A stretch of 64,000 bases of DNA, taken from Candidatus Pacearchaeota archaeon (GTDB taxonomy: Archaea; Nanoarchaeota; Nanoarchaeia; Pacearchaeales; GW2011-AR1). The notes beneath the pieces are model-generated. The model had not been told where the DNA came from. It worked only from the letters and a program-made list of their open reading frames with translations, and searched no databases. Position 1 is the stretch's first letter. Each line of letters begins with the position of its first letter. The stretch spans positions 1 to 64,000 of the forward strand of contig JALOBN010000008.1 in the NCBI GenBank assembly GCA_023228245.1. The letters run 5' to 3'. The position numbers and the translations under genes were made by a program. Shown piece after piece: positions 1 to 62,418 of this stretch.

Positions 1-107
1 ACGCTACTTGCTAGATCGCTGTGGAACGACCTATAAAGTTCAGCAAGAAGTCCTGCGCGAGGCATTGATCGAGTACTTAGATCGAAATTCGATGGCCCCG
101 CCCATGC
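1..107 (+). repeat. Left copy of 107-bp direct repeat
   Basis: Identical base for base to 58399-58505, same orientation. Identity reaches the window edge and may extend further left; it breaks at base 108 (c here, a in the other copy). It lies inside the coding sequence of the regulator that borders each tail module. Confidence 0.95.
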
Positions 108-304
108 CTGAGAAGAAACCCGAAAAAAGAAAGATCCCGCCCAATCGCCAGCCGCTTGAGGTTCGCGATCCAGATCTCGCGCAGAAAATAGTGGCCTATT
201 ATGGCGCTGGTAAACGCTCTGGTGGGCATTCGCGAAGCGAGACGGCAAAAGAGTTCGGGTTGGGTGAGGGTCAGATAGATAAGATTATCCGGCGCGCTAG
301 ATGA
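1..304 (+). CDS. DNA-binding protein, 5' truncated by window edge (RHH N-terminus, variable HTH C-terminus)
   Basis: The frame is open from base 2, so the start lies outside the window; a TTG at 8 is only an internal Leu codon. Bases 1-107 are identical to 58399-58505 inside the complete homologue at 58352, which shows the missing start. The shared part is the helical end of a ribbon-helix-helix-like domain. After it the proteins diverge: this copy ends in a different helix-turn-helix-like segment (SRSETAKEFGLGEGQIDKII). The stop overlaps the convergent tail gene by 8 nt. Inferred transcriptional regulator; target unknown. Confidence 0.75.
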   Translation, partial: RYLLDRCGTTYKVQQEVLREALIEYLDRNSMAPPMPEKKPEKRKIPPNRQPLEVRDPDLAQKIVAYYGAGKRSGGHSRSETAKEFGLGEGQIDKIIRRAR

Positions 305-1262
305 TCATGCAGTCGCCCAATGCCACCCCTGCGAAATTCCCACCGGCAGTCGACGGTGCAAAGTAGCCCACCAGATAGAAATCCAAGGCTGCATTCTCTA
401 TTTTTCCCTCAACAATTCGGTCAGAATCGCCCTCGACAGTGAACCACTGCCTGCCCCGGAGATAGGCGTACTGGTCAAACGTGCTGCCGTTCTTTCGCAG
501 GGCTGCTTGATAATGGGTTGTGCCGGTGACACCCGCCTCAAAGATTCCTACCGCTGCGCCGACCGGGAGCGCGGTTAGGTCTGCATAAGCTCCCGTGGTC
601 CCGGTCGAATAATCGGTCTTGGTGGTAGTGTTGAAGGTTGCCAATGCATCAGATGTTATATATCCGAGGAGATATATATCAGAATCCCACGCGCTCGTGG
701 AATAATATTCTACAATCCGATTGGTGCACCCCATCATGGCACAATGGTACATGCTGCCCTCTGCATGCGAATATAGGTTATCCGTGCACCCATCATTCCT
801 TAGCCCGAAACTGGACTCGTCTCGCTCCTTGATTAGCAAGATTACGCCTAGCGCGGTGCTTGGGATGTCATCGGAGAAGTCGATGTTTGTCCACGCGCTT
901 TCGGTGACGATTGAATATTCAATTGGCTGGCTCAGGAACTCGAATCCGCCGGTCAGGTAGCCTATAATATATATGCTGACATAAGTATTACTCTGTGCAT
1001 ATGCCTGAAAAACGTTGCTTGCATCGACACCCACCCACATGTCGTGTTGCTCAAGCGATGACGTGCCCGAACCATACGGCACCGACAGCGTGCACCCTTT
1101 CATACGAACGCCGCTATCGTAATCGCCCCTCGATACGATTCGCACCGCTACGCCGTTGGCCCCACCGGGCGGAAGCGTCACATAGTTGTCAAGATCTATG
1201 TCTACCCAAACACTGGTCGAGGCTATCGTTATTTTCGTGGGCTCAACTGCTACATATGGCAT
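297..1262 (-). CDS. Distal tail fibre / receptor-binding protein with three tandem domains
   Basis: 321 aa, last gene of tail module 1. Three tandem beta-rich units of about 100 residues each end in a similar strand (IYIIGYLTG, IYLLGYITS, FYLVGYFAP), and each carries an R-x-x-G/NGxT-like segment. This resembles repetitive host-recognition domains of phage fibres; the exact family is not recognised. Start ATG at 1262 has a GGAGTG Shine-Dalgarno just upstream, 3 nt after the previous stop. Position at the distal end of the tail operon supports receptor binding. Its positional counterpart in module 2 (58697-59389) is an unrelated LamG lectin-like protein. Confidence 0.7.
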   Translation of the reverse strand: MPYVAVEPTKITIASTSVWVDIDLDNYVTLPPGGANGVAVRIVSRGDYDSGVRMKGCTLSVPYGSGTSSLEQHDMWVGVDASNVFQAYAQSNTYVSIYIIGYLTGGFEFLSQPIEYSIVTESAWTNIDFSDDIPSTALGVILLIKERDESSFGLRNDGCTDNLYSHAEGSMYHCAMMGCTNRIVEYYSTSAWDSDIYLLGYITSDALATFNTTTKTDYSTGTTGAYADLTALPVGAAVGIFEAGVTGTTHYQAALRKNGSTFDQYAYLRGRQWFTVEGDSDRIVEGKIENAALDFYLVGYFAPSTAGGNFAGVALGDCMII

Positions 1263-1265
1263 GGC

Positions 1266-2471
1266 TCACTCCGAATGCTTGTTGATGCCGATTTTGAGCT
1301 TGACACCAAGCACGTAGATGGTCTCATCCAATACGTCGTCGCCGTGGGTAGGATCACGGTATAGCCTCAGCTCGCACGTTTCCCCGCCAGCGGGCGTGCC
1401 GCCTAGCGTGATGTCGGCCATGACCGGCGACTTAAGCCGCTTATAAGTTGCGCCTGTGGCTGAATCCGTCACCTCGACCGCTGTTCCCCAACTGGCATCC
1501 ATAGATTCATCATTGCCAATTGCGACCCCCTGCAGGCCGAACCGTACCCCGCTGCTTGTGGTTCCGGTGGAATACCAGGTCACATAACCCGAGATGGTGC
1601 CACCATCATAACCGTCGGGAAGCTCAAAATCACATGTTGCATATTTTTTTGCAGTATGCGGGAAGGCCAACGCGACCAGATTAAAATCGTTGGTGGAAAG
1701 CTCGATCTGTGTGGTGGATGAGGCCGCTGTACAACCATTGGTTATTGAGGCCAACCATGTCCCGGCCTTGATGTTGACGTGGATATACTTCTTGGCGAAG
1801 CTGTCCGCCGTCTTGCGCTTCATCGTGCCATTTTCATCGACTACCAGGCTGTCGGTGGTACCCACTGGCGCGGTGGTAGAAGCCGACTCCGCGAGCAGAA
1901 CCGCATTTACAATAGTCTCCGGCGTGCCAGCGTCCTTGCCAAGCTTGCCGGAATTATCGCCAAAAGAGACTATATGATCAGTGGTCGATGAGGCAGGACC
2001 CACGAAATCGCCAGTTCCGGCACCATCCGCTCCGCCGTAAGCAAACGCGCTCCAGACCGTTGCCCAATCTGCCCCCACTTCAGGCTCTGTTGATGCGCCT
2101 GATGTGTGCCCGGATGTGCATATATAGGAGCCTTTACCGTATCCGCTTCTGGCATGCTGGACCAAATCGTTGGCCTGGTAGGTTGTCGAAGTGGCCCAAT
2201 CGCCCTCTTCAGCCATAGTACCAGGATCGCCCGTGTCGCCCTTCACACCAGCTGGTCCCGCCCCCGGAAATACCTCCCAATAAGTTGCATAGCTCCCACC
2301 GGTGCCGGGTTCGCTTGCCGCTCCCGAAGTATGCGCTAGGATGCAGATGTAGCCAGAACCGTCATTGATTACCGTGTCATCGACGGCATAATCCACAGAT
2401 GTGAGCCATACGCTTTTCCAGAGGATAGGCGAACCGTCGCCTACCCGGATGAATTTCTCGACCAGTGTCAT
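1266..2471 (-). CDS. Tail fibre protein with two carbohydrate-binding-like modules and collagen-like linker
   Basis: 401 aa. Residues about 19-68 and 92-143 repeat a module resembling CBM5/12 chitin-binding folds: Trp, Tyr, x-D-x-V, Gly-x-Tyr-x-C, HTSGA, EPG/EPE, WATxW. Between them is a short collagen-like Gly-x-x stretch (GPAGVKGDTGDPG), as in many phage fibres. The C-terminal 200 residues are beta-rich, end in a jelly-roll-like segment, and match the C-terminus of the module 2 gene 60260-61240 in style (LRLYRDP... versus IVLFHIV...). Likely binds a host surface polysaccharide. GAGG SD upstream of ATG 2471. Confidence 0.7.
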   Translation of the reverse strand: MTLVEKFIRVGDGSPILWKSVWLTSVDYAVDDTVINDGSGYICILAHTSGAASEPGTGGSYATYWEVFPGAGPAGVKGDTGDPGTMAEEGDWATSTTYQANDLVQHARSGYGKGSYICTSGHTSGASTEPEVGADWATVWSAFAYGGADGAGTGDFVGPASSTTDHIVSFGDNSGKLGKDAGTPETIVNAVLLAESASTTAPVGTTDSLVVDENGTMKRKTADSFAKKYIHVNIKAGTWLASITNGCTAASSTTQIELSTNDFNLVALAFPHTAKKYATCDFELPDGYDGGTISGYVTWYSTGTTSSGVRFGLQGVAIGNDESMDASWGTAVEVTDSATGATYKRLKSPVMADITLGGTPAGGETCELRLYRDPTHGDDVLDETIYVLGVKLKIGINKHSE

Positions 2472-2481
2472 AAAACAAACC

Positions 2482-3624
2482 TCAGAAAATATCTCTATAA
2501 GTAGCGATTAAAAACGATAGCAGATGGTTAGATGTCTCTCCATCGCCAACTGTCAATGTTGCCGTTTCATCTTCTTCAATAGAAGGAAGATCGTTAACAT
2601 TACAATATCTTTCAATCTGTGCCTTCAGGCCCGATATCTGGATACTGGCATCGTCGCCGGTGACTATTCCGACAGCGATAAACGATTCCCCAACGGCGTC
2701 CAGAGGGAAGTCAATCTCATTTTTCCCGACAACCAGCGTATCGCAATCTATCTCTTCCAGATCGGATAGATCGGAGCTGTAAGCTATCTGCACCGTTGGC
2801 GCACCCGCGATTGCGGTAACATCTACTTCCAAATGAGGCGGTACATTACAGAGCAGCGGCCCATAGAAGGGGATCAGGATCTTGCCAGATGCGCCAATTA
2901 TTAGCGCGCCCTCTGCTATTGAGCCGCTTGTGCCATAATCGCAGAACGTGCTCCCTAAAAGGTCGATTTGCTGTTCTGCATAGGTCTTTTTGAAGGTCGT
3001 GGAATACTCATGCTTACAATTGCCAAATCTGTCTAATGTAAATCGGTCCCCTCTCATCAACTGTTGACAAAGAGTCACGTTGTTGGAACCTATCGAGAAA
3101 TAAGCATCTGTGGTATATTTTGGCGCGACGTAACCGCCCGACATGGTAAGGCAATCCAGGCCCGAAGGATAGTAGCCTGCATTAACAATGGTCGCTGTCT
3201 TCGGCAGGGGAACATTTCGCTGGAAGGCTATACCAGCATCCGCCCCATACAATAGCTCATTTTCGCATACTACAGTCGCATCGCTGTAATAAATCTGCCC
3301 GCCGCCCGCGATCTTGGTTATCTTGGCCGGGGTCGCATAGGCTTGCTGGATGTATGCTACCTGATCACTGTCAAATGGGCAAAATTCGGCTCCCGATGGA
3401 GCAGTATTGATCTCCTGGCGGGCCCGCTCTATGTCGCCCCTGGTGGTCGAATGAATCTCAAAAGAATAGGTTGCAGCGTCGTGCCCCGATTCGAGGACAG
3501 TCGCGTAGCTCATGCCAGAGGAAGACAGAGAGTCTATGTTCCGACCGCCGCCCGACACCGACACACCATCAATGTCCACGATATCTGTAAGGACAAGCCC
3601 ATGCAAAGAACAGTATGCGCTCAT
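2482..3624 (-). CDS. Distal tail protein (Dit-like)
   Basis: 380 aa. The N-terminal half carries the pattern of Dit/baseplate adaptor proteins: a Gly-rich turn near residue 25, a region with RGDIERARQEINTAP, and then 'FCPFDSDQVAYI'. The homologue at 61250-62416 has the equivalent 'NTAP...EFYPFDATRAGYI', so the family is represented twice in the window. C-terminal part is a galectin/jelly-roll-like beta domain. Start overlaps the upstream hub gene by ATGA. It probably joins the tail tube to the tip hub and fibres. Confidence 0.65.
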   Translation of the reverse strand: MSAYCSLHGLVLTDIVDIDGVSVSGGGRNIDSLSSSGMSYATVLESGHDAATYSFEIHSTTRGDIERARQEINTAPSGAEFCPFDSDQVAYIQQAYATPAKITKIAGGGQIYYSDATVVCENELLYGADAGIAFQRNVPLPKTATIVNAGYYPSGLDCLTMSGGYVAPKYTTDAYFSIGSNNVTLCQQLMRGDRFTLDRFGNCKHEYSTTFKKTYAEQQIDLLGSTFCDYGTSGSIAEGALIIGASGKILIPFYGPLLCNVPPHLEVDVTAIAGAPTVQIAYSSDLSDLEEIDCDTLVVGKNEIDFPLDAVGESFIAVGIVTGDDASIQISGLKAQIERYCNVNDLPSIEEDETATLTVGDGETSNHLLSFLIATYRDIF

Positions 3625-5558
3625 ATTGACAACCTCTTATAAAAATTCATAGAAGCCGAAACCGATAGCTCTGGATGGTCTTCCTCATCGGTATGGGCCA
3701 CCTCGTACTCGCTTGCCATGTGCACCCAGACTTTTACAGTATTTGTGGCCTTAGTGGTTATGCTGTCGGTGATGTCGATTTCTGGAATAGAGCTGCTACT
3801 GGTCTGCCCGATGCAGAGCCCTACTATGGCCCCATCTGGAACGACCACATCATCTATTTTTACTTCCAGTGCGCATCGGCCCAAATCCAGATCCTTTGTC
3901 TCGCTTATTTCTATCCAGTCGGTCGCCCATGAGGCCCCTATGCCCGGCTTGGTTGATGCAGCAGACGTGTGATCCGCAATGCAGCGATACAATTTTGTGA
4001 TTTCGTCTGAATCATCGCAATAGACCTCATCTCCAATAACGTATGCAGTTGAAGTTTTCCACATGGCGGTATTATCCACTGGCGAGATGGTCAAGCCAAG
4101 CGTGATCTTTGGATTGTATTTGTCCAAATCAACGCCAGGAGGAACATAGAACTCCATGCCGGCGGGTGCAAAGACGTGGGATGGATCTGATATGTGGATA
4201 GTCTCTGTCTTGGTGAGGGATTCCCGTTGATCCCTCAAATATTTATCAGTGAACCCACCTGGCGTGGACTCTCTCGCGTCCTCGACATCTTTCAGGGTCA
4301 AGTCCCTGTGCCCAAGCGACAGCTTGGTTTTGCCAGGCGACTCCACAATTTCCTGAGATCGGAAAATGCCCGGTGTCGCATGCAACGGATAGAATTTGAA
4401 GTAATCCCCGGGATAAATTTGAAACTGCCTGGCAACCTCGATATCATATTGCTGGTCTTGCTGCCGCCCGATGTAGTGGGCATCGACCTTGCGCTGGAAC
4501 ATACCATCGTCGCCGATGAATCCTGACTCCACTTCTAAAATTTCATGGACCCTCAGGCCCATGTAGGTAGGATCATCGGCAGAATATCGCTGCTCTCCGA
4601 ACCCCTGCCCGATGGTGCAGTGCGTCTTAGGATCGCCAGCGGTTGACTTCTCTATAGAACAGAATCCCCTCTCGCCTTCCCTGATAGTATACAGGCCGCC
4701 GGTTGACCCCCGGCCATCGGAAATCATCAGGTCAATGTAAGTGTAATTGTCATCGTCCCTGACCCTAACATACAGGTTGCTTGCGGTAATCAGATCCGCA
4801 ATGAGGTCCCCTATTTCGTCTAAGTTGGTTTCAAGGTCGCCTAATAGCGTTTGGGATGAATCATAGACCTCCCCTAGCCTAATCGTGGTATCATAGGCAC
4901 CATCCACAAGAAGGCCGCCATGCAGATACCAGGATCGGCATTTCTGATTATCTACTCGGATATACAGATCACTGACATCCCTATAATATCCTGTGTCGGT
5001 ATAGGTCAGGAGCGCCAGCGTTCCAGCATCAGTAAGCTTGATAGTGGCCGTGTTGCCAATGACATATAGATCACGGGTGCTGAAATAGCTCTGCGTGCCA
5101 TATCCCACGAGCTTGATGATGTTATGCGTCGCGTCATAGATCGAATATGGTAGGCCGGGCGGCACGGCGCTATTTGCCATTGCCAACAATCCAGGCACCG
5201 CATTATCTGTTAATTCGTCTGTTAGTATTTCTTCCAATGAAGATATGCCCATTGGATAGAAATATCGCACCGCTGGCCGGGAGTTTAGCAGCCCCTCCAT
5301 GCCTTTGACCGTCCATGTGGTCTTTGAGCCAGATGAGATATCTATCGAATTGCTCTCACAGTATCCTCGGAACTTGACCATGTTGCCGTCTTTGGCGGTG
5401 ACGATGGAGAACTGCGGAATGGGCAAGCGGCGATCTACCGTTAGCTCCATCTCGCGCGCATCCATGCGATCCAAGACAACCGGTCTGGTTAGCTCATAGT
5501 CGCAGTCGATGTTTTTTAGGGTTGTACCAGACGGCGTCTTTACATTGATCTTAATCAT
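3621..5558 (-). CDS. Tail tip hub / tail-associated protein (Tal-like)
   Basis: 645 aa. Begins with a beta-rich hub-like domain ('KINVKTPSGTTLKN', 'DARE..LTVDRRLP', 'FRGYCE'), placed directly after the tape measure as tail-tip hub proteins are. Residues about 500-553 hold one CBM5/12-like insert (WKTSTAYVIGD..Y.C...HTS...GASWATDW), the same module found in the fibre gene next door. Homologue in module 2: 62419-64000, which lacks the insert. ATGA overlaps with both neighbours indicate translational coupling. Confidence 0.7.
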   Translation of the reverse strand: MIKINVKTPSGTTLKNIDCDYELTRPVVLDRMDAREMELTVDRRLPIPQFSIVTAKDGNMVKFRGYCESNSIDISSGSKTTWTVKGMEGLLNSRPAVRYFYPMGISSLEEILTDELTDNAVPGLLAMANSAVPPGLPYSIYDATHNIIKLVGYGTQSYFSTRDLYVIGNTATIKLTDAGTLALLTYTDTGYYRDVSDLYIRVDNQKCRSWYLHGGLLVDGAYDTTIRLGEVYDSSQTLLGDLETNLDEIGDLIADLITASNLYVRVRDDDNYTYIDLMISDGRGSTGGLYTIREGERGFCSIEKSTAGDPKTHCTIGQGFGEQRYSADDPTYMGLRVHEILEVESGFIGDDGMFQRKVDAHYIGRQQDQQYDIEVARQFQIYPGDYFKFYPLHATPGIFRSQEIVESPGKTKLSLGHRDLTLKDVEDARESTPGGFTDKYLRDQRESLTKTETIHISDPSHVFAPAGMEFYVPPGVDLDKYNPKITLGLTISPVDNTAMWKTSTAYVIGDEVYCDDSDEITKLYRCIADHTSAASTKPGIGASWATDWIEISETKDLDLGRCALEVKIDDVVVPDGAIVGLCIGQTSSSSIPEIDITDSITTKATNTVKVWVHMASEYEVAHTDEEDHPELSVSASMNFYKRLSI

Positions 5559-8500
5559 TTCGCCGCCTCATACATCTTTTTGGTCAGTCTGCTCTCGATT
5601 TCTTTTGCAAGTTTCTTCTCATTTACGGCGGTCTTGGAATTGTTAATGACAGTGATGTTTATGTCACCGAACCCGCCCAACGCAGAGGCCGAACCGTGCC
5701 CTGCAAACCCACCTGAGGCAAAGGTCCTGATGCCCAATTCCTTCATGACCTGTGGCAAGATGCGCCTGCCTGCCGCGCGATCTGAGATGGGGACAAAGGC
5801 TTCTCTTCCGGCCTCGCCGAATACGCCGTAAACTGGATGATCGGTTATGCCGCCTTCGGCCCACCCCCACGAAACACCGCCATATGAACCGCTTGATCCA
5901 GCATTTGCAGAGGCTTGTGCGCCCCATCCAGACGATGATGCGCCGGTTCCCACCCAGCCACCGCCACCTGAGACCGACAAACCGCCCCAAAAACTTCCAG
6001 ACGTGCTCCCATACAGCCCGCTAGATCCTCCGCCGCCGCCCACCGAAGACACCAACATGCCCGTGGCATCCAATGTCAATCCGCTGAGCGACAGTGCTTG
6101 CTGCTGAAGGGCATACTGCTTTCCCAATTGATCATATATGTTGCTGGTATTCTCTTCAGTTTTCTGTTGCTCTTTATAAGATTCTTCGGCGACCTTCATC
6201 TGATTTTTCAGATCGGAGTTTGCTGCTGTAGCAACATTTGACCACCCATAGCCAGGTTCCTTGTCCTCGCTTCTGTATGGGCTATTTGTAGATAGTCCGA
6301 GATAGAATGGATCAGTGGTCTTTAGGCTTGCATCCGGGGCCACAAATGAAAGCCCCTCACAGGTATCGGTTCTCGGGTCATATGTGGCAATGTAACCCTC
6401 CTTGCTCAGGCCGGTTACTAGCGCGCCGCTTCCGCCTACTGAGAATGCGCCACCCGGAAAATTGGAGAGAGATCCACTTGTCTCGAATATACCGGTAGAT
6501 AGAATGTCTATCTGCTCGGAGAGGAACTTTTCGCTTGCAGCGGTGTTATCTTCGATGTCCGCGAGGATAGATTCAGCCCGGTCGCTTGATGATGCCACTG
6601 TCTGGCGGGCAGACAGTGGCATTGATCCAGATGCCAGATAAAACGGGTCAGTGGTTTTCAGGTAAGGCGCTTTCAACAACGGAATGCAAGAATCTGACCT
6701 TGGATCTTTCAACAAGGTTACATCCTCATTAATTTTCATTGACCCACTGTTAAGATAAAATTCGTCTGTTGTTTTTAAATATGGGGCACTCAATAGAGGA
6801 ATGCAAGCATCGCTTCTTGGATCTCTGAGCAAAGTCACATTATCATTTACTTTTATATCTCCCGTATCGATACTGGGGACGGCCCCGCCCTTATTCGCGG
6901 CCCAATTCTCAGCATACTTGGGCGACAATGCCGTTGCCGCTTCTGTCCACCAATCAGGTTGCGCCACCTCGCCTTTTAGCCAATATGGTACGACTGACCC
7001 CGCGCCGGTCTTGATCGCGTCGAGCTGCATTGCTCGGATCTCGGAGCTGATCATCTCCATGCCGGTAGTTTGTCCCTCGGACAGCCACGCGCTAGGCACG
7101 TTGCCAGATACGTTGACCTGTGGGGCGTTGGGCCATTTGCTATATTGGTAGCCGGATGGAGGAGTTATCTGATATTGGTAGTCCTCGAAGAATTTTTCTC
7201 CAGTCAAATATTGCATCGAGCCTTTAGCGGCCTTGGCAAAGTCTGGGTAAAGGCCTTTGATATCTGACTCTTTAATAACTCGCTCGCCTTTTTGTACCCA
7301 CGCAGGCCCGGATTGTGCAACAACACCGGTTTTTATTCCTTCATCATACCAAGCGCCAGCCGCCTTGAATTGGCTCTCTAAATTTGATGCAGCATATGGA
7401 TTGGCAAATGCGGCAGAAATCGCTTGCCCTGACCATTTAGAGCTTGTTAGTGATGTGCCTTGCCAGGTTGTTCCTGCGCTGCCGTAAGAACTCGCATGGG
7501 CACTGGAAAAAGAACTTGCAGCGGAGATCGCGGCAGCGGCAGCGCCCAATATCGCGGTATTGAACTGCAATAAGCTGCCGTTGGTCATCGCTATATGGTT
7601 ATCGGTGATGAGAAACGTGGTTCCTAATTGTTTACCGCCCGCATCGAGCACCACGAGACTGTTTCCGACCTGTTTAACTTGGCTATTGTACTCGACCATC
7701 CCGGTAGAGAGCAGCTGGCGGTACCAGGTCTCTTTTGTTATTTCAGGGGATAGTTCCTCGATATCTTTCTTCAGAGAGGGGAACGTGCTAAGAAGTCCAA
7801 CGTCTTTGCTGGTGACGGCCTGCTCCATCGCATTAATCCAGGTCTTGGTCTGCTCCGGGGTGGTCTTGTCGGCCTCCCAATCATGCCTAGATCTTTGCTG
7901 TTCATATTTTGGTATCTGGCCGGTTACATCTGCGATGGCGACATAGAGATCTGCCTTTTGCTGGAGCCACAGAGCAAAATCAGCCTCGAAATCACCGCTT
8001 GCTTTTAGATTAACTTCAAACGTCTTACCAGATAGGATGTCATCGATGTTGGTCAACAGTGCCTGGTCATCAGCCGAAAAATCTAGGGGGATATTTTGCT
8101 TATAAGTCTCTAGCAGTTCCTTATAAACCTCCAACTGTTTGCGTTCCATGTCGCCAAATATACCGTCTGAGACAACCTCTCCTAGATCGCTGCTCATGCC
8201 GGTATATTGGGTTTCCATGAACTTGGCAGAATTTTTGATACTGCCTCTCAGGTCGTTGTAATAGGCATCGGCAATTGCTTCTGATGTGTCTTTTCCAGAC
8301 GACTCTATCTCTTTCCATTCCGTATCGTCCGGGCCTTTCCACCAGTTGAGCTTGGTGTTATTGGATTCAGTTTGTCTAAGGGTATATTGGGAGCCTAGGA
8401 TGCTCATGGTGTTGTCGGCGCGCTTCATCTTGCCTTGGCCGCCCGATTGGGACTCGGCAGCAGCAAGCGCGGCGTTTGTTGTCATTCCAGACGCGATGAG

Positions 8501-10399
8501 TGCCGCTACTTCAGGCGAATTTTCTTTAAGAAGTTCGTTTACCTTGTCGAGATACGCCTGCCCGAACAGACTGCCCATCTGTTTTCCGGCCTGCCCCGCC
8601 ACATCATACAGTTTCAAATAATTATCTGAGAACGTCTTAGGCAGTGCGGTATTAAGTTCCTGGTTGAGCGCGTCCACATAACCAATGCCTGTCTTGCTGC
8701 CCAAATCCTTGAAAGATGCATCTGAGAAGCTTGCGCCGCTTGTGGCCTGCTCGCCCACCTTGTACATTGCAGATGCTTTGTAAGCGGCGGCAGCATTAGC
8801 AGCATCAGTATCTACTTGGGGCTCAGTGTAATATTTTCCGCCCGGCATATAGTCGGCGTTGTTATAGCCCATGAAACTAAGATATGAATTGGTGGCGCTG
8901 GTCATGGCCGATCCCGCGCCCGTTGCGAGTTTTTGCGCTGCTACAAATGCCTCAGATCCTAGCTGGTTGCCTTTTACCCATGCGTCTGCGATGGTGTTGG
9001 CAATATCGGCCACAATGGGCAGCAATAGGCCGCCAATCTTCTCTAAGCTGACCTGGGCAGCCTGGCCGATGCGATCAAATGCCTTGCTCGCATTATCTGC
9101 AACATCCTCATAGCCCTGAGCCACATTGCCCGGCTTCATCGCCAGGTCAATCGCGCCCTGGAGCTTGCCGGTTCCGGCCTCTATATCAGCAACTACCTTG
9201 TCGATTAGGACTTTGCCCTCTAGCCCAAACATCTTCGCGGTGTCGGGGCGTTCTGACTCCGGCAGGGCGGCTATGGCTTCGCCCAACCCCTGGACCGTGC
9301 CCATGAAGTCGGTCTTAAGCGATGATGAAAGGGAAGCCTGGTCTATGCCTAGGATGGCGGCAACCCCTGCCCCATTCTGATCCATCTTTTGGGCGACGCG
9401 CTCTATTTGGGTTCCGGCTTCTCCCGCGCTCGATCCTGTATCTATCAGGAAAGAGGCCATCGCTTGCCACTTACCATAGGTTTCCTCGCTTGGCGCATAC
9501 TTGGCAATGGCACCCGATGAGTTCCTCATCGCAGTAACTATTTCTTCTTCAGAGGAGCCCATCGCATTGGCAAGATTGTCCACTTGTCCGCCCACCCTAT
9601 AGGCATAGTCAGCCCATGACATCTCTTCCTCGCCGCGCGCCTTTCTTTGGACATTCCACGCGCCCAATGTGACAGAGCCCATCTTGCCGATGCCCTGAGC
9701 GGTCGATTCGGCAGACATCCCCCAGGCACCTTGCAGGATTGCGGTTGCTTTGGTGAAATCCAGGATCTCCTGTTTATAACCAGACACATCGCCAGCAGTT
9801 AGCTTGGATTGACCGACTCCAATAGATCCGGCCTGTTCCACCATGCTAGAGGCGGCCTGAGCAGTGACACCGAACTCCTGCCTGAGATCCTGGAGCTGGT
9901 TCATCAGGTCTTCCAGGTTGTCGCCTTTGAGTCCCGTGGTGCGGCCTATGCTGGTTTTCATATCCTCCCAGGCCATTGCAGCGTTAACAGACGCTGCCGC
10001 AAGCACACCGACACCTACGGCTGCCGCTCCTGCCGCTATTCCAATGGGGCCGAGGGCAGTCGCTACGCTGGTAGCCATGCCGCCCATCACGCCAAACTGT
10101 TGGGTCATGCCCATTGTCAGAGTTTGGCCCATCTCCTTTCCGACATTGGCAAACTTGCCTTTCTCGGAATTTAGGAAAGAGGAGAAGCCACCAGATACGG
10201 TGTTGGGCGGCTCGATAACAGACTTGATTTTTAGAGTCTTGGCTTCGATCTTATCAATAGCCGAAAAAAAGTTTCCAAAGTTGGGTTCCGGCACCTTGAT
10301 TGCAGGAACTTTAATGTTTGATAGTGTTGTATTCAGTTTTTGCAATTCGCTTGTAATGTTGCTGAAATTTGCAGTTCCTGATATCTCAAATGCTGGCAT
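5555..10399 (-). CDS. Tail tape measure protein
   Basis: 1614 aa, the longest gene, lying between the chaperone frameshift pair and the tail tip hub, as in siphoviruses. An Ala/Gly-rich hydrophobic stretch lies at about residues 95-140. A helical TMP-type core follows (SSMVEQAG, GQAAQ). Near the C-terminus is the usual tape-measure motif 'GGI...PVYGVFGEAGREAFVPI'. An unusual segment around residues 1210-1370 repeats DPRSD-x-C-IPLL-x-APYLKTTD-x-FYL two to three times. Length predicts a tail of roughly 240 nm at 0.15 nm per residue (family rule, inference). Confidence 0.92.
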   Translation of the reverse strand: MPAFEISGTANFSNITSELQKLNTTLSNIKVPAIKVPEPNFGNFFSAIDKIEAKTLKIKSVIEPPNTVSGGFSSFLNSEKGKFANVGKEMGQTLTMGMTQQFGVMGGMATSVATALGPIGIAAGAAAVGVGVLAAASVNAAMAWEDMKTSIGRTTGLKGDNLEDLMNQLQDLRQEFGVTAQAASSMVEQAGSIGVGQSKLTAGDVSGYKQEILDFTKATAILQGAWGMSAESTAQGIGKMGSVTLGAWNVQRKARGEEEMSWADYAYRVGGQVDNLANAMGSSEEEIVTAMRNSSGAIAKYAPSEETYGKWQAMASFLIDTGSSAGEAGTQIERVAQKMDQNGAGVAAILGIDQASLSSSLKTDFMGTVQGLGEAIAALPESERPDTAKMFGLEGKVLIDKVVADIEAGTGKLQGAIDLAMKPGNVAQGYEDVADNASKAFDRIGQAAQVSLEKIGGLLLPIVADIANTIADAWVKGNQLGSEAFVAAQKLATGAGSAMTSATNSYLSFMGYNNADYMPGGKYYTEPQVDTDAANAAAAYKASAMYKVGEQATSGASFSDASFKDLGSKTGIGYVDALNQELNTALPKTFSDNYLKLYDVAGQAGKQMGSLFGQAYLDKVNELLKENSPEVAALIASGMTTNAALAAAESQSGGQGKMKRADNTMSILGSQYTLRQTESNNTKLNWWKGPDDTEWKEIESSGKDTSEAIADAYYNDLRGSIKNSAKFMETQYTGMSSDLGEVVSDGIFGDMERKQLEVYKELLETYKQNIPLDFSADDQALLTNIDDILSGKTFEVNLKASGDFEADFALWLQQKADLYVAIADVTGQIPKYEQQRSRHDWEADKTTPEQTKTWINAMEQAVTSKDVGLLSTFPSLKKDIEELSPEITKETWYRQLLSTGMVEYNSQVKQVGNSLVVLDAGGKQLGTTFLITDNHIAMTNGSLLQFNTAILGAAAAAISAASSFSSAHASSYGSAGTTWQGTSLTSSKWSGQAISAAFANPYAASNLESQFKAAGAWYDEGIKTGVVAQSGPAWVQKGERVIKESDIKGLYPDFAKAAKGSMQYLTGEKFFEDYQYQITPPSGYQYSKWPNAPQVNVSGNVPSAWLSEGQTTGMEMISSEIRAMQLDAIKTGAGSVVPYWLKGEVAQPDWWTEAATALSPKYAENWAANKGGAVPSIDTGDIKVNDNVTLLRDPRSDACIPLLSAPYLKTTDEFYLNSGSMKINEDVTLLKDPRSDSCIPLLKAPYLKTTDPFYLASGSMPLSARQTVASSSDRAESILADIEDNTAASEKFLSEQIDILSTGIFETSGSLSNFPGGAFSVGGSGALVTGLSKEGYIATYDPRTDTCEGLSFVAPDASLKTTDPFYLGLSTNSPYRSEDKEPGYGWSNVATAANSDLKNQMKVAEESYKEQQKTEENTSNIYDQLGKQYALQQQALSLSGLTLDATGMLVSSVGGGGGSSGLYGSTSGSFWGGLSVSGGGGWVGTGASSSGWGAQASANAGSSGSYGGVSWGWAEGGITDHPVYGVFGEAGREAFVPISDRAAGRRILPQVMKELGIRTFASGGFAGHGSASALGGFGDINITVINNSKTAVNEKKLAKEIESRLTKKMYEAAK

Positions 10400-10400
10400 T

Positions 10401-11218: not shown

Positions 11219-11351
11219 AACAATTCTCCTGCAAAATTGTACCTGGAAAGAGGCCAACCAAACCGCCAGGATTCGGCTTGTCAGGTACGTATCCCTATGA
11301 TTGGCCCGCGAAAGCGTCTTTAACGCGATTCTGTGAATTATAAAAAGATGG

Positions 11352-11552
11352 TTATACTTTTGGTGTTAGAATGTAATCTTCTTCCAATGCCGCCTTAAGC
11401 AATGGATAGAACACTGTGAAAATATTTGCCTGATCCGGCTCGCTGCCCGCCAAAAGTGCTAGAATCTGAGGATATAGCGAGGCGGCAAGCACCGCCTCAT
11501 CTACATTGTACTCTATTTGCCCGACCTTCGGGTACGTATGCACTATCTTCAT
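11352..11552 (-). CDS. Small conserved tail-region protein, unknown function
   Basis: 66 aa starting at ATG 11552, which overlaps the preceding tail-tube gene stop as ATGA. Helical, acidic, no membrane segment. Lies between the tube protein and the chaperone. About 130 bp separates it from the chaperone ATG; that gap shows no further gene. No family recognised. Confidence 0.6.
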   Translation of the reverse strand: MKIVHTYPKVGQIEYNVDEAVLAASLYPQILALLAGSEPDQANIFTVFYPLLKAALEEDYILTPKV

Positions 11553-12550: not shown

Positions 12551-12562
12551 TTAAGACTCTCC

Positions 12563-13671: not shown

Positions 13672-13694
13672 GACAAGAAATCAATTCGCTTGTC

Positions 13695-43746: not shown

Positions 43747-44033
43747 TTGAACCACAGCCGCCATCCCAGATGTACCATGCTCTCTTGCAATTCCTCAAGT
43801 TCCTTTGTCTTGGCCTCAATTTGCCGCTTGATTGCGTTTGTTTCCGCGTCTATGAATTGAGACAGATCGACCTCGACTTCTTTGAAGAATTCGATCTTTT
43901 CAGGCGGGACATCATACGAATATATCCATCCATCACCATCACATGATAGCGGAATGGCTCCTTTGCAGATCGATTCTGCGAGAGAGTACCATTCGCGGTC
44001 TTTGGTAGAACATTTGTAGAGATTGAGCTTCAT
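43743..44033 (-). CDS. Hypothetical protein with coiled coil
   Basis: 96 aa. N-terminal alpha/beta part with two Cys; C-terminal coiled coil (AIKRQIEAKTKELEELQESM). Follows RecT with ATGA overlap. Confidence 0.55.
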   Translation of the reverse strand: MKLNLYKCSTKDREWYSLAESICKGAIPLSCDGDGWIYSYDVPPEKIEFFKEVEVDLSQFIDAETNAIKRQIEAKTKELEELQESMVHLGWRLWFK

Positions 44034-44899
44034 GCTGATACCTCCTTCTCAGGATCAATACCCATCTCATCGCCGTCATACATTCCAGAGAACTCCGACG
44101 GAAACGCTTCTCGAAGAGCCTGTACCAAGGCCACTTTCCTAATCATTGTGGCGGGTTTTGAAACCCAATTAGACTTGCCCGTGCTGTATTCGCCCATCGA
44201 AACGGCCATCTTATACGGCGTTGCTTTGCGATCTGAGCGGTATACTTCGGCCCACCCCCCCAACAGATCTTCGCCTTTCAGAAGGAAGGTGCCCTCTCTG
44301 TAATCCAGCCCGTTTAGACTGCCTGGATTCTTCACAATGATTCCCGCTTTGTAGCCGTCAAATTTTGGATGGTCCTCCGCCTTTTTGGTAAATGCATCTT
44401 TGCCCACAACCATTTGAGCGGGTTTCGTCTGGTCGTACTTGATCAAGTAGGCATCACGAAGGAATGGGTTGAGGTTTCGGGCTTGACAAAGCTTCAGGAA
44501 TATCATAACTTCCTGGTCGTTTGCTGCCGGGCAGATATATGTCTTGATGTCCTCGAAGGTTAAATCCGCCACCTGGATATCGCGGACTGCCCCCGAGGCA
44601 GGCTTGATTTGCCCAAGGCCCGACGATCTCTCCTTGGTGGGAACAATTGCCTGCCCGTTGGACGATCTGCCGTTCTTGGCCACTACAGGCAGATATTCCA
44701 TGAAGTCCAGCCCGAACTCCACGGGAGCAGACTGCAAGCATCCTGCATCCAGCCACACGATGGGATCACCGTCACCAGGAGCACCCGCAAATATCCTTAT
44801 CTTGCCATCTTCGGACGTGCTGAAGGTCTCGCAGTTGGCGTTGCAGTAGGCGGCGACTGCTTGAGCGAGATCGGCAGGAGACAGGGATTTGCCAGCCAT
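44030..44899 (-). CDS. RecT-family single-strand annealing protein
   Basis: 289 aa from ATG 44899. The conserved core 'FLKLCQARNLNPFLRDAYLIKYD', 'KDAFTKKAEDHPKFDGYKAGI', 'PYKMAVSMGEYSTGKSNW', 'KPATMIRKVALVQALREAFP' marks RecT/Bet proteins. Ca. 110 N-terminal residues are extra. Anneals single strands in recombination-dependent replication. A partner exonuclease could be the nuclease at 49576. Confidence 0.88.
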   Translation of the reverse strand: MAGKSLSPADLAQAVAAYCNANCETFSTSEDGKIRIFAGAPGDGDPIVWLDAGCLQSAPVEFGLDFMEYLPVVAKNGRSSNGQAIVPTKERSSGLGQIKPASGAVRDIQVADLTFEDIKTYICPAANDQEVMIFLKLCQARNLNPFLRDAYLIKYDQTKPAQMVVGKDAFTKKAEDHPKFDGYKAGIIVKNPGSLNGLDYREGTFLLKGEDLLGGWAEVYRSDRKATPYKMAVSMGEYSTGKSNWVSKPATMIRKVALVQALREAFPSEFSGMYDGDEMGIDPEKEVSA

Positions 44900-44900
44900 T

Positions 44901-45263
44901 TCAGATCGCCCCCAATCGTTGTGCCTCGCAATCTGCCGCCGCTTGCTCATTGCGAATTTGCCACTTCAGGCAATCCACTGCCATACAGGCAAGATCAAAG
45001 GCAAGCTGGCATTCCCGCTTTTCGGCCTCGGCTTTCTCGGCATCCTTTCGTTCATCGAAAGTTAGCTCTCGGATCGTGGCATTTCTCGCAGCCTCGTTTC
45101 CGCCTAGCTTCTTGGGGTCGGCGGCATTGACCAGCAAAACGGCGGCCTCGGCTTTCTTCAGGGCCTCCCGCGTCGCCAACTCACGCTCTCCTGCATGGAA
45201 GAGCGATACCTTACTATTTCGCATTGCATCGAATGCGTTTTGTAGATCGACATTGCTTACCAT
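44901..45263 (-). CDS. Coiled-coil protein beside RecT
   Basis: 120 aa, Ala/Glu/Arg-rich helices (ALKKAEAAVLLVN, ERKDAEKAEAEKRECQL). Ends 1 nt before RecT. Possibly a recombination accessory; no family recognised. Confidence 0.55.
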   Translation of the reverse strand: MVSNVDLQNAFDAMRNSKVSLFHAGERELATREALKKAEAAVLLVNAADPKKLGGNEAARNATIRELTFDERKDAEKAEAEKRECQLAFDLACMAVDCLKWQIRNEQAAADCEAQRLGAI

Positions 45264-55837: not shown

Positions 55838-56575
55838 TCAAACCAGATGCAACAGCGCATAAATCCATATCATCCAGCCATCAATAAGCAGATCGTATTG
55901 CAAGTTAGGGCGCTGCTTACTGAAATAAAGTATAAAGATCCCAATCATGGCCGCGATAACTGGCGACAAAAAGGCAATCGGTACGTCGATGGCCGCCAGG
56001 ACCATTAGCGTTCGCGAAGATCCGAGGATAACGGGCAAGGTTCGGACCCCATTCATGGAGTCGCCGCAAATATCCCTCAGATCAGAGAATATTGTGCCGG
56101 CCATCATGAGCAAAAAGATCAGCATGTAGCCGCTGCCGGTCAGCCAGCCATAGCAGAAAGCGGTTGCAGTGGCGACAATCAGATTCTTGGCTAGAGGAAT
56201 GTCCTTTGGCCGGATACCGCAAATCCTTGTTGTATAGAGTGCTCCAGCGATACCTGGCGCGAGTACGGCATATATCGCGATAGGCCGCCAGACAGTCACT
56301 AACACGATTGCAGCGACGTAGGCAAAGGCAGCAAGCCGCTTAATAGGATACTTGGCAAGCATTGCTCTGTCAGGATCATTCAGCAAGTCCTCTCGCGAAC
56401 CTGACACCTTGTCAATCGCATAGACTGCCCATGTGACCAAGAAAACAAGCGCGCTTGCTATCGGATCATAAGGCAGGCCATATATCTTGCAGATGATCGC
56501 CGGGCCGAGGGAGGCGCTTAGGGCAATCCATATAGAAGATATAGACAATAGACGAAAGATATAGATTAAGGACAT
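55838..56575 (-). CDS. UbiA-family prenyltransferase
   Basis: 245 aa, eight or so hydrophobic segments. First Asp-rich motif region YAIDKVSGSREDLLNDPDR and second motif DLRDICGD match UbiA enzymes, which transfer isoprenoid chains to acceptors in membranes. In archaea the family includes the ether-lipid synthase for the second geranylgeranyl group. Leaderless with a TATA box 23-33 nt ahead (56598-56608). Substrate not deducible; could remodel host lipid or quinone-type cofactors. Confidence 0.85.
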   Translation of the reverse strand: MSLIYIFRLLSISSIWIALSASLGPAIICKIYGLPYDPIASALVFLVTWAVYAIDKVSGSREDLLNDPDRAMLAKYPIKRLAAFAYVAAIVLVTVWRPIAIYAVLAPGIAGALYTTRICGIRPKDIPLAKNLIVATATAFCYGWLTGSGYMLIFLLMMAGTIFSDLRDICGDSMNGVRTLPVILGSSRTLMVLAAIDVPIAFLSPVIAAMIGIFILYFSKQRPNLQYDLLIDGWMIWIYALLHLV

Positions 56576-56665
56576 AAAAATAGCACCGTGCCTGAAGTAT
56601 ATAGATTATAGGAAAAGATGGAAGGAATATTTATAAGTGAGCTGAAAAGGTGAAACTAAAAGAGT

Positions 56666-57436
56666 TTAAACTTTATGGGATAGGTTTTTATAATGATTGA
56701 ATAATCGCATCCCCCATTCTACCGCCCCCGCCCCTCTGCATACTAGATCCTGATTGGTATCGTACTTGCCCGAGAGGAGATACAATCCAAGCGATAATAT
56801 GTCATCGGCCACTGTGAAGGCCGTCTTAACTTCCTGATCTATCTGATACAGATGGAAGTTGCTCGCGGCAAGCAAGCTCTTGAGCTGCTCCTGGTCGAGC
56901 AAGGCCATGATCTCGCTTGTCAGGATCAAGTGGACTTCGGCTCCTGCCTCTACCAGTCCTGCAATGAGCTCTGCATGACCCGGTGCAATGACAGGCGACA
57001 CTGCCCACATATGCTTTGCCTTCGATGTTTCCCGCAAGAAGCCATCCAATGACTTCATCACGAAGCCATTGTCCTGTACGCATTGGCCGCCAGACAGCAA
57101 ACCTATATCGGCCAACAGCCCAGCTGGAATGCCTGAGATATCATGAGATTGCCAAAAGGCAGCATTCTCATCCAGAGCAATCAGGCAAGAAAGCAGCCGG
57201 TTAAGGGCCTCGGCCCGGATCATGCCTAGATTGGTCAGATGATATGTCGTCCCTTCCTTCGCGATCTCTTCTCGCATGGCCGCAATCGAATGTGCCACAG
57301 TTGATGTGCTCGCGCCAACGACCCCCGATAGAGGCCTAATCGGCATTGGCCCATCTCGGAGGGCTAGAAGGATCTTACCCCTGGTAGATGAGCCTGTTAA
57401 GGCGCGTAAGCCGGCTTCGGCTTGATTATAGATCAT
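56666..57436 (-). CDS. FilR1-type winged-helix regulator
   Basis: 256 aa. N-terminal winged helix (RGKILLALRDGPMPIRPLSG, STSTVAHSIAAMREE, YHLTNLGMI), then a FilR1-like ligand or output domain (FWQSHDISGIPAGLLADIGLL, VSPVIAPGHAELIAGLVEAG, 'SLGLYLLSGKYD'). The family is abundant in Methanosarcinales and was named in Methanothrix; its presence supports such a host. Probably captured from the host; may redirect host transcription. ATGA start overlap. Confidence 0.8.
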   Translation of the reverse strand: MIYNQAEAGLRALTGSSTRGKILLALRDGPMPIRPLSGVVGASTSTVAHSIAAMREEIAKEGTTYHLTNLGMIRAEALNRLLSCLIALDENAAFWQSHDISGIPAGLLADIGLLSGGQCVQDNGFVMKSLDGFLRETSKAKHMWAVSPVIAPGHAELIAGLVEAGAEVHLILTSEIMALLDQEQLKSLLAASNFHLYQIDQEVKTAFTVADDILSLGLYLLSGKYDTNQDLVCRGAGAVEWGMRLFNHYKNLSHKV

Positions 57437-58351: not shown

Positions 58352-58726
58352 ATGAGATTATGCCTAGATGTAGACCAATCGCTAGCAGTAAGGTTGAAAC
58401 GCTACTTGCTAGATCGCTGTGGAACGACCTATAAAGTTCAGCAAGAAGTCCTGCGCGAGGCATTGATCGAGTACTTAGATCGAAATTCGATGGCCCCGCC
58501 CATGCATGAGAAGAGGTCCGAAAAAAGGGGAATTGGCGCACCAATTCCAGTCTCGCGCGAAGGCGAGACGAAGCGGCCAAGGATTCGCGATGATCCTATG
58601 CTGGTTAAGAAAATAGGCGCGATGATCGCAGATGGCAAGACCATCGCAGAGATTGCGAGGGAGATAGGATATTCGTGGAGCACGGTGAAAAGCTACCTAC
58701 AACATGCCTCGCTGGAACGCATATAA
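58352..58726 (+). CDS. RHH + HTH DNA-binding protein bordering tail module 2
   Basis: 124 aa. Residues 1-45: strand RLCLDVDQSLAVRLKRYLL and helices of an RHH. Residues 85-120: resolvase-type HTH (KTIAEIAREIGYSWSTVKSYL). Identical to the truncated left-edge gene over 107 bp, then different. Leaderless. Its 3' end overlaps the convergent lectin-like gene by 30 nt, so an exchange inside the gene would swap its C-terminal HTH together with the tail genes. Confidence 0.7.
   Translation: MRLCLDVDQSLAVRLKRYLLDRCGTTYKVQQEVLREALIEYLDRNSMAPPMHEKRSEKRGIGAPIPVSREGETKRPRIRDDPMLVKKIGAMIADGKTIAEIAREIGYSWSTVKSYLQHASLERI
58399..58505 (+). repeat. Right copy of 107-bp direct repeat
   Basis: Identical to bases 1-107. 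To its left lie the promoter and first codons of the regulator, which the left edge lacks. Confidence 0.95.
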
Positions 58727-59389
58727 GCGGCTCATTTGGGCAGGCGTAAGCGCATAATCCAGCAGTTGCAGCTCATCCATCGAGCATGTGGGCAGGTAGC
58801 CGACCGATAGCGGTGTATATCCGTCCACATAGGCCCCTCCGATGGAGCAACACCGATACGCTGCGCTGCTCCCGAATGTGGGAGTCACCGGATTCGGTTC
58901 TTCCGCATCCACTGCCCCGTCGACATAGATCCTGGCATAGCTATCGTCTCTGGTGGCTGCTATAAGATGCCATTTGCCATCGTTTACGACCTTGGTTCCC
59001 GCCAGGATCAACGCCCAACTTGTCGATCCATCGCCCAAAATTAGCCTAACAATTCCAGACGACGTTTCGATATCATATCCATAGAAATTCGAGCTAGAAC
59101 TATTCACTTTTATCCCCGATGCCGTGAAAAGTATAGCTCTTCCTGAAGTATCCGTCCCTTTGTACCACAATATGACGGAAAATGCGGTGAGAAACAACGT
59201 GGCAATCAACGTCAGAGCGAACCGCGCCGTTCCATCGAAAACGGCGCATTTTCCGAATCTTCCGAAAGCGAACGTCACGCCTCCGCTATCGGTTCCGTCG
59301 TGACCGTTCCCGGAAGAATCGTTGCCATTGCTCTCGAAATGCCAAAGTCCCTCGCAGCCTTCATGTGGCCAATTGTATGCGCTACTCAT
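58697..59389 (-). CDS. LamG / concanavalin-like lectin tail protein
   Basis: 230 aa. Single LamG-like jelly roll: GCEGLWHFESNGNDSSGN, 'FGKCAVFDGTARF', 'FSVILWYKG', 'DGKWHLIAATRDDSYARIYVDG', 'CSMDELQLLDYALTPAQM'. Binds sugars in related proteins. Takes the distal-fibre position of module 2. Confidence 0.8.
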   Translation of the reverse strand: MSSAYNWPHEGCEGLWHFESNGNDSSGNGHDGTDSGGVTFAFGRFGKCAVFDGTARFALTLIATLFLTAFSVILWYKGTDTSGRAILFTASGIKVNSSSSNFYGYDIETSSGIVRLILGDGSTSWALILAGTKVVNDGKWHLIAATRDDSYARIYVDGAVDAEEPNPVTPTFGSSAAYRCCSIGGAYVDGYTPLSVGYLPTCSMDELQLLDYALTPAQMSRLYAFQRGML

Positions 59390-60252
59390 TCCGTATACCG
59401 CCAGGCTACCGGCATCGACCAGATATAGATATACGCATCCGCTCCCGGTGTCGTTGCGTGCCCGCTGTCATAGTCGAGAGAAATCTTGCTTTTAGCGGCG
59501 ACTGCAACCGTTGCCGTGGCCTCGGTTGCAGCAGCGGCTATTTCCGGCTTTGTGGCAAAGACTGAAGTCCCATCGTCATTGATATCCCAGACTCCTTTCG
59601 TGGTCGTCGGAGCAGTCTGGTAGACCACCACAGTCGAAAATACATAACGATCTTCCCGCCAGGACAGGATCTTCCCGATGTTGGTTTGTGCCGCGATAGG
59701 CATGTTGCCAGGAATGGTCCAGCAGTCCTCTTGTGCCCGATGAATGCAGTATTTCATGCCCGTAAAGCCTGCCGAAATGGTGTTACCTTTCAACTCGAAA
59801 GTAACATAATTGGCGGCATAAGAGGCTGAAATGATCTTCGCCGCTTGCCACCCGCCGCCCGACTTCTCCCAGGAGATGATCGTTCCTGCCGAAAAGATCA
59901 GGTCGTAACCGTTCGCGTTGGAGGTGTCTACAATTCTGAAAGAAGTATCGGACACACGCGACGGCAGGCCCGGCATATCTGCCCATATCGTTTTTATGCC
60001 GCTCGCCCCATCCGTGCCTTTTTCGGCGTATAGACTCCAGTAGGCATTCTCTGTATCAGGATACGTGGGCGGATCGTTGCCAGTCGTCTCCTGGAGGGCA
60101 TAGAACGCCCTCCCTCCGAAAATCGCCCCGTCGTTGGCGGCATACGTGGTTCCCGCTCCGTACTCTCCCTTCCAGCTCAACGTGCCTCCTGGGATGCCTT
60201 GCGGGCCGATCAGGTTAGGGATATCTGATCTGAGGAGATATCGCTGTTGCAT
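59386..60252 (-). CDS. Tail fibre protein
   Basis: 288 aa from ATG 60252. Starts with collagen-like GPQGIPGG, then a CBM5/12-like unit (WKGEYGAGTTYAAND...), then an all-beta domain (GYDLIFSAGTIISWEKSG) and Ala-rich helix near the C-terminus. ATGA overlap with the lectin gene. No counterpart of this domain set in module 1. Confidence 0.65.
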   Translation of the reverse strand: MQQRYLLRSDIPNLIGPQGIPGGTLSWKGEYGAGTTYAANDGAIFGGRAFYALQETTGNDPPTYPDTENAYWSLYAEKGTDGASGIKTIWADMPGLPSRVSDTSFRIVDTSNANGYDLIFSAGTIISWEKSGGGWQAAKIISASYAANYVTFELKGNTISAGFTGMKYCIHRAQEDCWTIPGNMPIAAQTNIGKILSWREDRYVFSTVVVYQTAPTTTKGVWDINDDGTSVFATKPEIAAAATEATATVAVAAKSKISLDYDSGHATTPGADAYIYIWSMPVAWRYTE

Positions 60253-60259
60253 GGCTGCC

Positions 60260-62416: not shown

Positions 62417-62418
62417 TT

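What the first reader, a model, noticed from the sequence alone, without database searches (positions are those of the whole stretch)
1..5558. Two diverged host-recognition tail modules joined to one identical border gene
Bases 1-107 equal 58399-58505 in the same orientation. Right of each copy lie convergent tail genes in the same order (fibres, Dit-like, hub) but with strongly different sequences: 297-5558 versus 58697-64000. Either the virus carries a duplicated, exchangeable receptor module, or the molecule is a circle of 58,398 bp and the sequence has run past its origin into a second allele of the same locus. I favour the second, since identity begins at base 1 and nothing else is duplicated. 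Either way host-range genes vary as a cassette.
Basis: partly seen in the sequence, partly recalled or inferred. Interest (0 to 1): 0.85.

Follow-up and report, generated by a model that had tools for sequence, protein, structure and literature searches.

The report
Virus contig overrunning into alternative tail genes
A virus that probably infects methane-producing archaea seems to have been read slightly more than once around its ring-shaped genome, with the second pass running into a different version of its tail genes, an instance of the known interchangeability of tail genes in tailed viruses.

Summary
Observation confirmed. Bases 1-107 equal 58399-58505 exactly, the only exact repeat over 15 nt. 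Right of each copy lie homologous but strongly diverged tail genes in the same order (fibres, Dit-like, hub-like). The window is the first 64,000 bases of a 64,780-bp contig that starts at base 1. The favoured reading (a circle of 58,398 bp overrun into a second tail allele) is well supported, not proven. Three relatives with exact end repeats close at 59.7, 59.9 and 56.6 kb; in none was a second Dit, hub or tape measure found. One of them, G007, has the same early flank, the border gene, then one tail operon; L107/L108 have that flank with the other border-gene version. So the two versions are alternatives at one locus. The border gene is itself mosaic, though it is not found beside the tail in G001, G005 or L109. 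'Cassette' needs qualification: B-type Dit genes elsewhere come with a distant tape measure, and B-like fibres sit on another tail type, so the exchanged unit may be larger, and a chimeric join of two viruses is not excluded. This is a known kind of variation (metaviromic islands, flexible modules), here probably in a methanogen virus.

The parts
1..107 (+). First copy of the exact repeat; starts at the contig's first base
58399..58505 (+). Second copy of the exact repeat, inside the complete border gene
2..304 (+). A0: border gene, A-side version, 5' part cut by the contig start; N-terminal half identical to B0, C-terminal half different. The ORF tool starts it at base 8
   Evidence: relatives in L107/L108 (68%)
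58352..58726 (+). B0: border gene, B-side version, 124 aa; N-terminal half tentatively ribbon-helix-helix, C-terminal helix-turn-helix (all Pfam hits below curated cut-offs); 3' end overlaps B1 by 30 nt
   Evidence: relatives
297..1262 (-). A1: last gene of tail set A, probable distal fibre/adhesin (by position); 3' end overlaps A0 by 8 nt
   Evidence: no PHROG; CBM96, below cut-off
1266..2471 (-). A2: tail fibre with carbohydrate-binding module CBM_5_12
   Evidence: (PHROG tail fiber)
2482..3624 (-). A3: Dit-like distal tail protein, version A
   Evidence: homolog of B4
3621..5558 (-). A4: hub-like protein, version A (label from gene order; no family hit, structure model failed)
5555..10399 (-). 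Tape measure protein, seen once in the window
   Evidence: phrog_28, 2.5e-9
58697..59389 (-). B1: laminin-G/concanavalin-like lectin domain, distal fibre
   Evidence: homolog in G005 35%
59386..60306 (-). B2: tail fibre
   Evidence: homolog in G005 53% over 216 aa
60260..61240 (-). B3: fibre sharing the A2 N-terminal repeat unit
61250..62434 (-). B4: Dit-like distal tail protein, version B
62419..63999 (-). B5: hub-like protein, version B; open to the window end, N-terminus (94 aa by L015) lies beyond 64000
55838..57436 (-). Early flank found beside the border gene in G007, L107 and L108: UbiA-like prenyltransferase (55838-56575) and FilR1-like regulator (56666-57436)
44030..44950 (-). RecT single-strand annealing protein, possible driver of module exchange (inference)

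Best explanation
The window is one circular or circularly permuted genome of about 58,398 bp of a head-tailed virus, probably of a methanogenic archaeon, read once round plus about 6 kb. The contig starts inside the border gene, crosses tail set A and the whole genome, returns to the border gene and leaves the first path at base 58506 into a different version of the same locus, tail set B, carried by other genomes in the same sample. The two versions share at least 107 bp of the border gene exactly and differ from its linker onward, so the crossover that exchanges tail genes lies in or left of that stretch. Shown here: the sequences, unit length and order by comparison with relatives, and that the two border versions occur at one locus in different relatives. 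Inferred: that B comes from the same virus population; that exchange uses homologous recombination, possibly helped by the virus's RecT; that it changes host recognition.
For: Single exact repeat starting at contig base 1. Within the window, head genes and tape measure were seen once, Dit, hub and fibre-type genes twice. Relatives with exact end repeats close at 59,700 (G001, 4,571-bp repeat), 59,924 (G005, 75 bp) and 56,617 (G007, 127 bp); ORF self-comparison (150 aa or more) shows no second Dit, hub or tape measure in them. After removal of overlapping shadow ORFs, 25 of 26 reciprocal best hits between window and G007 are colinear (200 shuffles: mean 9.7, maximum 13); 26 of 30 with G001 and 13 of 14 with G005 (shuffle maxima 13 and 9) (before removal 27/28, 31/42, 16/17). 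G007 has UbiA-like, FilR1-like, border gene, then one tail operon, across its own closed circle. B0-type border gene behind that flank in G007, A0-type in L107 and L108. The border gene is mosaic in relatives too: P0003, P0004 and P0008 carry another N-terminal half on the B0-type helix-turn-helix. 107 is odd, as a k-mer overlap at a fork would be; G007's 127 and G005's 75 could be the same signature (inference).
Against: No reads and no other contig of the sample were available. The 780 bp after base 64000, where set B must meet a tape measure, were not seen; a search aimed at that piece returned nothing from this contig. The window-G007 anchors run from 15 to 58.7 kb; the tail region and the closure itself carry none, because the tails differ. 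The border gene is not a constant landmark: no match in G001, and in G005 only a weak one away from the tail; none in L109, which has the same flank. B-type Dit genes elsewhere have a distant tape measure (4 of 4: L015, L013, G002, L103) and G002 has no match to the window's capsid, which would also fit a chimera. Set B is the strongest outlier in tetranucleotide use (z 6.1, beyond all 95 core slices); set A (z 3.8) and the modules of G001 (3.1) and G007 (2.7) are also beyond all their core slices, G005's two slices (1.7, 0.4) are not.
Confidence: 0.65

Rival explanations
1. Chimeric assembly: the 58.4-kb circle is right, but the B arm comes from a different virus that shares little more than the border-gene segment and was joined there by the assembler. 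Biology then shows only a recently shared border-gene half, not two alleles of one population.
For: B-type Dit genes elsewhere go with a distant tape measure (L015, L013, G002, L103), and G002 has no match to the window's capsid; set B is the compositional outlier; identity starts exactly at the contig edge.
Against: A B0-type border gene sits behind the same early flank in G007, and B1/B2-like fibres occur in G005, which has the window-type capsid (78%) and a closed circle, so B-like parts do belong to window-like viruses.
Confidence: 0.22
2. True duplication: one genome of 64 kb or more carries two tail sets, as a spare or switchable receptor module.
For: Both sets have open genes and lie in one contig.
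Against: No second Dit, hub or tape measure found in the three closed relatives; A3 and B4 differ as much from each other (35%) as A3 does from G001's Dit (37%); no tape measure or upstream tail gene is duplicated inside the window; the repeat starts at base 1; no long inverted repeats for switching.
Confidence: 0.07
3. The 107-bp identity is conservation of an essential DNA-binding half or a packaging or integration site, unrelated to circle closure.
For: Border-gene relatives are found in other contigs (10 of the 12 hits are not the window's own).
Against: 35 full codons are identical at every position, while the closest other protein, P0001, already differs at several residues in that stretch; the N-terminal half is the less conserved half among relatives.
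Confidence: 0.04

Closest known systems
Metaviromic islands in marine phages (Mizuno, Ghai, Rodriguez-Valera 2014, PMC3909814; abstract and passages read)
   Same: Regions of phage genomes that under-recruit reads from the same habitat, with host-recognition genes prominent; its Table 1 also lists tape measure and DNA-binding genes.
   Different: There shown by read recruitment against many genomes; here inferred from a single contig with two arms, in a probable archaeal virus.
Flexible gene modules in cryoconite phages (PMC7468147, Nat Commun 2020; abstract and passages read)
   Same: Alternative homologous versions of a module coexist in each location and interchange against a near-identical core, attributed to recombination.
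   Different: Core identity between A- and B-carrying genomes could not be measured here.
Haloviruses HF1 and HF2 (described in the review PMC4284463, passages read; the original paper was not read)
   Different: Two haloarchaeal isolates; here a metagenomic contig with no isolate.
Hafunaviridae adhesin groups (PMC8651126, abstract and passages read)
   Same: Archaeal tailed viruses whose adhesin gene lies in a hypervariable region, with four adhesin groups and overall genome relatedness a poor predictor of host range.
   Different: One adhesin gene (with a small neighbour) there; here Dit, hub, fibres and the neighbouring border gene all differ.

Membership tests
Flexible host-recognition module / metaviromic island | Alternative homologous gene sets at the same locus | tested here: met
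   A3/B4 and A4/B5 homologous in the same order; both border versions behind the same flank in G007 and L107/L108
Flexible host-recognition module / metaviromic island | Near-identical core genomes carrying the alternatives in one sample | not testable with these tools
Flexible host-recognition module / metaviromic island | Content includes host-recognition proteins | tested here: met
   By family only: tail fibre PHROGs on A2, B1, B2; LamG on B1 above cut-off; CBM_5_12 on A2 above cut-off
Closed-circle contig with end repeat | Exact repeat at both contig ends | tested here: not met
   First copy at the contig start, second at 58399-58505, 6,275 bp before the end of the 64,780-bp contig
Closed-circle contig with end repeat | Unit length and gene order match closed relatives | tested here: met
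   58.4 kb against 56.6-59.9 kb; colinear chains 25 of 26 (G007), 26 of 30 (G001), 13 of 14 (G005), above all 200 shuffles each
Tandem duplication inside one genome | Second tail set present in complete relatives | tested here: not met
   No second Dit, hub or tape measure in 3 of 3 closed relatives
Invertible (invertase-switched) tail genes | Inverted repeats flanking a segment | tested here: not met
   No exact inverted repeat over 15 nt; none of 40 nt or more with mismatches; both sets lie in the same orientation
Diversity-generating retroelement | Reverse transcriptase and template/variable repeat pair | tested here: inconclusive
   No direct repeat pair of 40 nt or more besides the border repeat and one 47-nt pair; not all genes were scanned for reverse transcriptase
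Dit (distal tail) protein | Dit fold in B4 | tested here: inconclusive

The most novel reading that the evidence does not exclude
In part of this virus group the border gene is a standing exchange point: a two-part DNA-binding gene whose 3' end overlaps the last fibre gene, so that crossovers in its linker bring in a new tail operon together with a matching C-terminal DNA-binding half, letting tail type and its regulator reassort as a pair in viruses of methanogens.
Probability: 0.1. Interest if true: 0.55.

Novelty: new member of a known kind. Interest (0 to 1): 0.3.

Why it matters
It argues that the window is a nearly closed virus genome rather than a virus with a doubled tail, and adds a probable methanogen virus to the cases where tail genes at one locus exist in strongly different versions. 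The mosaic border gene gives a precise place to look for recombination junctions in reads. It also warns that end-repeat tests can miss circles whose second pass enters another allele.

Tried and rejected
The window's own genome is not held. No near match in the phage collection for 1-20000, the only part searched this way; B4 has no tblastn match there; terminase and capsid match only at under 60%. Both genome-contig scans (terminase, B4 alignment) confirmed no relative. A 53-base probe of the border gene found nothing in viral contigs. The search for the tape-measure piece beyond base 64000, with A- and B-type C-termini as rows, listed 19 proteins, none from the 64,780-bp contig; not evidence either way, since a fragment may be clustered under a longer protein. 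The hub model was poor (pLDDT 40) and was not used for a fold search; 'hub' rests on gene order. Composition was tried as a test of foreign origin and is weak, since the modules of G001 and G007 deviate too. Considered and rejected: invertible segment, tandem duplication; DGR left inconclusive. Paper searches in the held open-access library: Methanothrix + virus + tail fiber, six assembly-graph terms and ribbon-helix-helix + tail fiber + archaeal virus + mosaic listed none; a tail-module/allele search listed one unrelated paper. Searches gave listings, from which five papers were opened for passages.
Full report
What is in the sequence. Bases 1-107 and 58399-58505 are identical in the same orientation. 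Similarity continues at 97% to base 129 and ungapped identity then drops to chance. No other exact repeat, direct or inverted, exceeds 15 nt. Each copy lies in a small plus-strand gene (the border gene) that ends against, and overlaps, the last of a row of minus-strand tail genes. Set A is A1-A4 (297-5558) followed by the tape measure (5555-10399). Set B is B1-B5 (58697 to the window end). A3/B4 are 32% and A4/B5 25% identical; as DNA only one 54-nt stretch matches beyond the repeat at E < 0.001. B5 is still open at the window end; by comparison with the full gene in L015, 94 codons (282 nt) are missing.

Where the contig starts and ends. Two proteins in the large protein database are the window's own border proteins, and the contig they come from is 64,780 bp long. 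One of them, P0012, is 100 aa, begins with arginine and equals the reading from base 2, so it is a partial gene at a contig edge. The window therefore begins at the contig's first base, and 780 bp lie beyond its end.

Circle size. Three relatives were read whole. G001 (IMGVR_UViG_3300002171_000008, 64,271 bp) repeats its first 4,571 bases exactly at its end, giving a circle of 59,700. G005 (IMGVR_UViG_3300034158_000041) has a 75-bp end repeat and a circle of 59,924. G007 (IMGVR_UViG_3300042808_000057) has a 127-bp end repeat and a circle of 56,617. The window's 58,398 falls in this range. Self-comparison of ORFs of at least 150 aa shows no second Dit, hub or tape measure in the three; G005 and G007 each have three related ~235-aa tail genes in a row, and in G001 one short stretch (87 aa) is shared by a hub ORF and a gene of the head region. 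G001's overrun shows that a record can run past its origin; there both passes agree. A fourth record read whole, G002 (55,288 bp), has no end repeat and no match to the window's capsid.

Gene order. After overlapping shadow ORFs are removed, 25 of 26 reciprocal best hits between the window and G007 are colinear, against at most 13 in 200 shuffles; 26 of 30 with G001 (a block with helicase and PCNA genes has moved; shuffle maximum 13) and 13 of 14 with G005 (maximum 9) (raw counts 27/28, 31/42, 16/17). The G007 anchors run from 15 to 58.7 kb of the window; the tail region has none, since the tails are of different types. In G007 the order is UbiA-like, FilR1-like, border gene, then one convergent tail operon of a third type, within a closed circle. 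In L107 and L108, which overlap identically where compared and may be the same virus, the two flank genes are followed by a border gene of the A0 type (68% to A0; DNA 79% over 152-296). In G007 the border gene is of the B0 type (48%). Both versions therefore occupy the same place in different viruses. This is the strongest argument that sets A and B are alternatives at one locus. Against a universal rule, L109 has the two flank genes but no border-gene match in the part held, G001 has none, and G005 only a weak one (E 0.005) away from its tail.

The border gene is mosaic. Within the window the two copies share the first half and differ in the second. Of 12 database hits, two are the window's own; P0003, P0004 and P0008 have a different first half on the B0-type second half; P0001 and P0002 have first halves that resemble B0's to differing degrees. 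The last residues vary as well: P0001-P0004 end exactly like B0, in the 30 nt that overlap B1, and P0007-P0009 end differently. Pfam sees a helix-turn-helix in the second half and, weakly, a ribbon-helix-helix in the first; all are below curated cut-offs. That the overlap ties the second half to the fibre gene is an inference. Against a strict tie, the A0-type border gene goes with a G007-like tail in L107, and the B0-type goes with that tail in G007.

How big is the swapped unit. B-type genes are close in L015 (84-87%, DNA 75%) and more distant (55%) in L013 and G002; in L103 only B4 is clearly B-type (52%; hub 27%, no nearer than to A4, 29%). Close copies of single genes exist elsewhere: A3 93% in P0014 and B4 96% in P0013, both on short contigs without context. 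The L015 tape measure is a good PHROG tape measure but matches the window's only over 425 columns at 28%, L013 and G002 over 398 at 27%, L103 over 56 at 41%. A-type relatives are no more identical (L011 28%, G001 26%) but match over 1,722 and 945 columns, and at the C-terminus, next to the hub gene, G001 is 51% identical to the window while L015 and G002 are 16-18%. G005 has the window-type capsid, a different hub and tape measure, and fibres like B1 (35%) and B2 (53%). Fibres, hub/Dit plus tape measure, and head genes thus combine differently among relatives, and B in this sample may reach beyond the hub.

Mechanism. Most likely, genomes in the sample share the early region and the border gene's first half and differ beyond it. 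The assembly graph forks there; the contig begins at the fork, goes round through A, returns to the fork and leaves through B. An exact overlap of 107 (an odd number) fits a k-mer length, but the assembler is unknown. The exchange itself is presumably homologous recombination at the conserved border half; the virus encodes a RecT annealing protein, which is suggestive only. The alternative, that the assembler joined two different viruses at a shared segment, keeps the circle but weakens the allele claim; I give it 0.22. A true duplication I give 0.07.

Host. FilR1_middle (86.6 bits, cut-off 27), PCNA (35.6, cut-off 20.3) and a UbiA-like gene (32.3, just under its cut-off of 34.2) point to a methanogenic archaeon. 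A B4 relative is named Methanothrix sp. (P0037, 55% to B4), and one terminase match at 40% is listed with host Methanosarcinales. Against this, the closest terminase and capsid matches are phages of bacteria or of unstated host, and Candidatus Pacearchaeota appears as a record name. Head-tailed (pro)viruses associated with Methanotrichales are reported in PMC11576556 (passages read); whether this virus is among them was not tested. The host is a lead, not a result.

Known or new. Variation of this kind is described as metaviromic islands (PMC3909814), flexible modules (PMC7468147), the HF1/HF2 divergence (PMC4284463) and adhesin groups in Hafunaviridae (PMC8651126); passages of these were read, not the whole texts. 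What may be new in detail is the mosaic DNA-binding gene at the border; one paper search for such a gene found none. The finding is real, mostly explained, and of moderate interest.

Noticed in passing
window 34938-37786: Helicase (34938-36320) and DNA methylase (36884-37786) are separate ORFs with an HNH endonuclease ORF (36343-36897) between them; in G005 both match one ORF (54499-56769), and in G001 an HNH-ORF homolog lies beside an ORF matching the helicase C-terminus and the methylase.
   Followed up: partly
window 37882-38607: PCNA-like sliding clamp encoded by the virus, with homologs in G001 and G005.
   Followed up: no
window 55838-57436: UbiA-like prenyltransferase and FilR1-like methanogenesis regulator near each other, also in G007, L107, L108 and L109.
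   Followed up: partly
window 20970-21830: Matrixin-type metalloprotease domain (Peptidase_M10, 37 bits, cut-off 24), with a homolog in G005 (45%).
   Followed up: no
G001 33981-36009; L011 6952-8878: The hub homolog is two overlapping ORFs in G001 and is matched as two overlapping stretches in L011, while it is one ORF in the window.
   Followed up: no
window 38783-38872: tRNA-Tyr gene predicted.
   Followed up: no
window 16429-16475 and 17590-17636: 47-nt direct repeat at 85% identity, the only other repeat of 40 nt or more.
   Followed up: no
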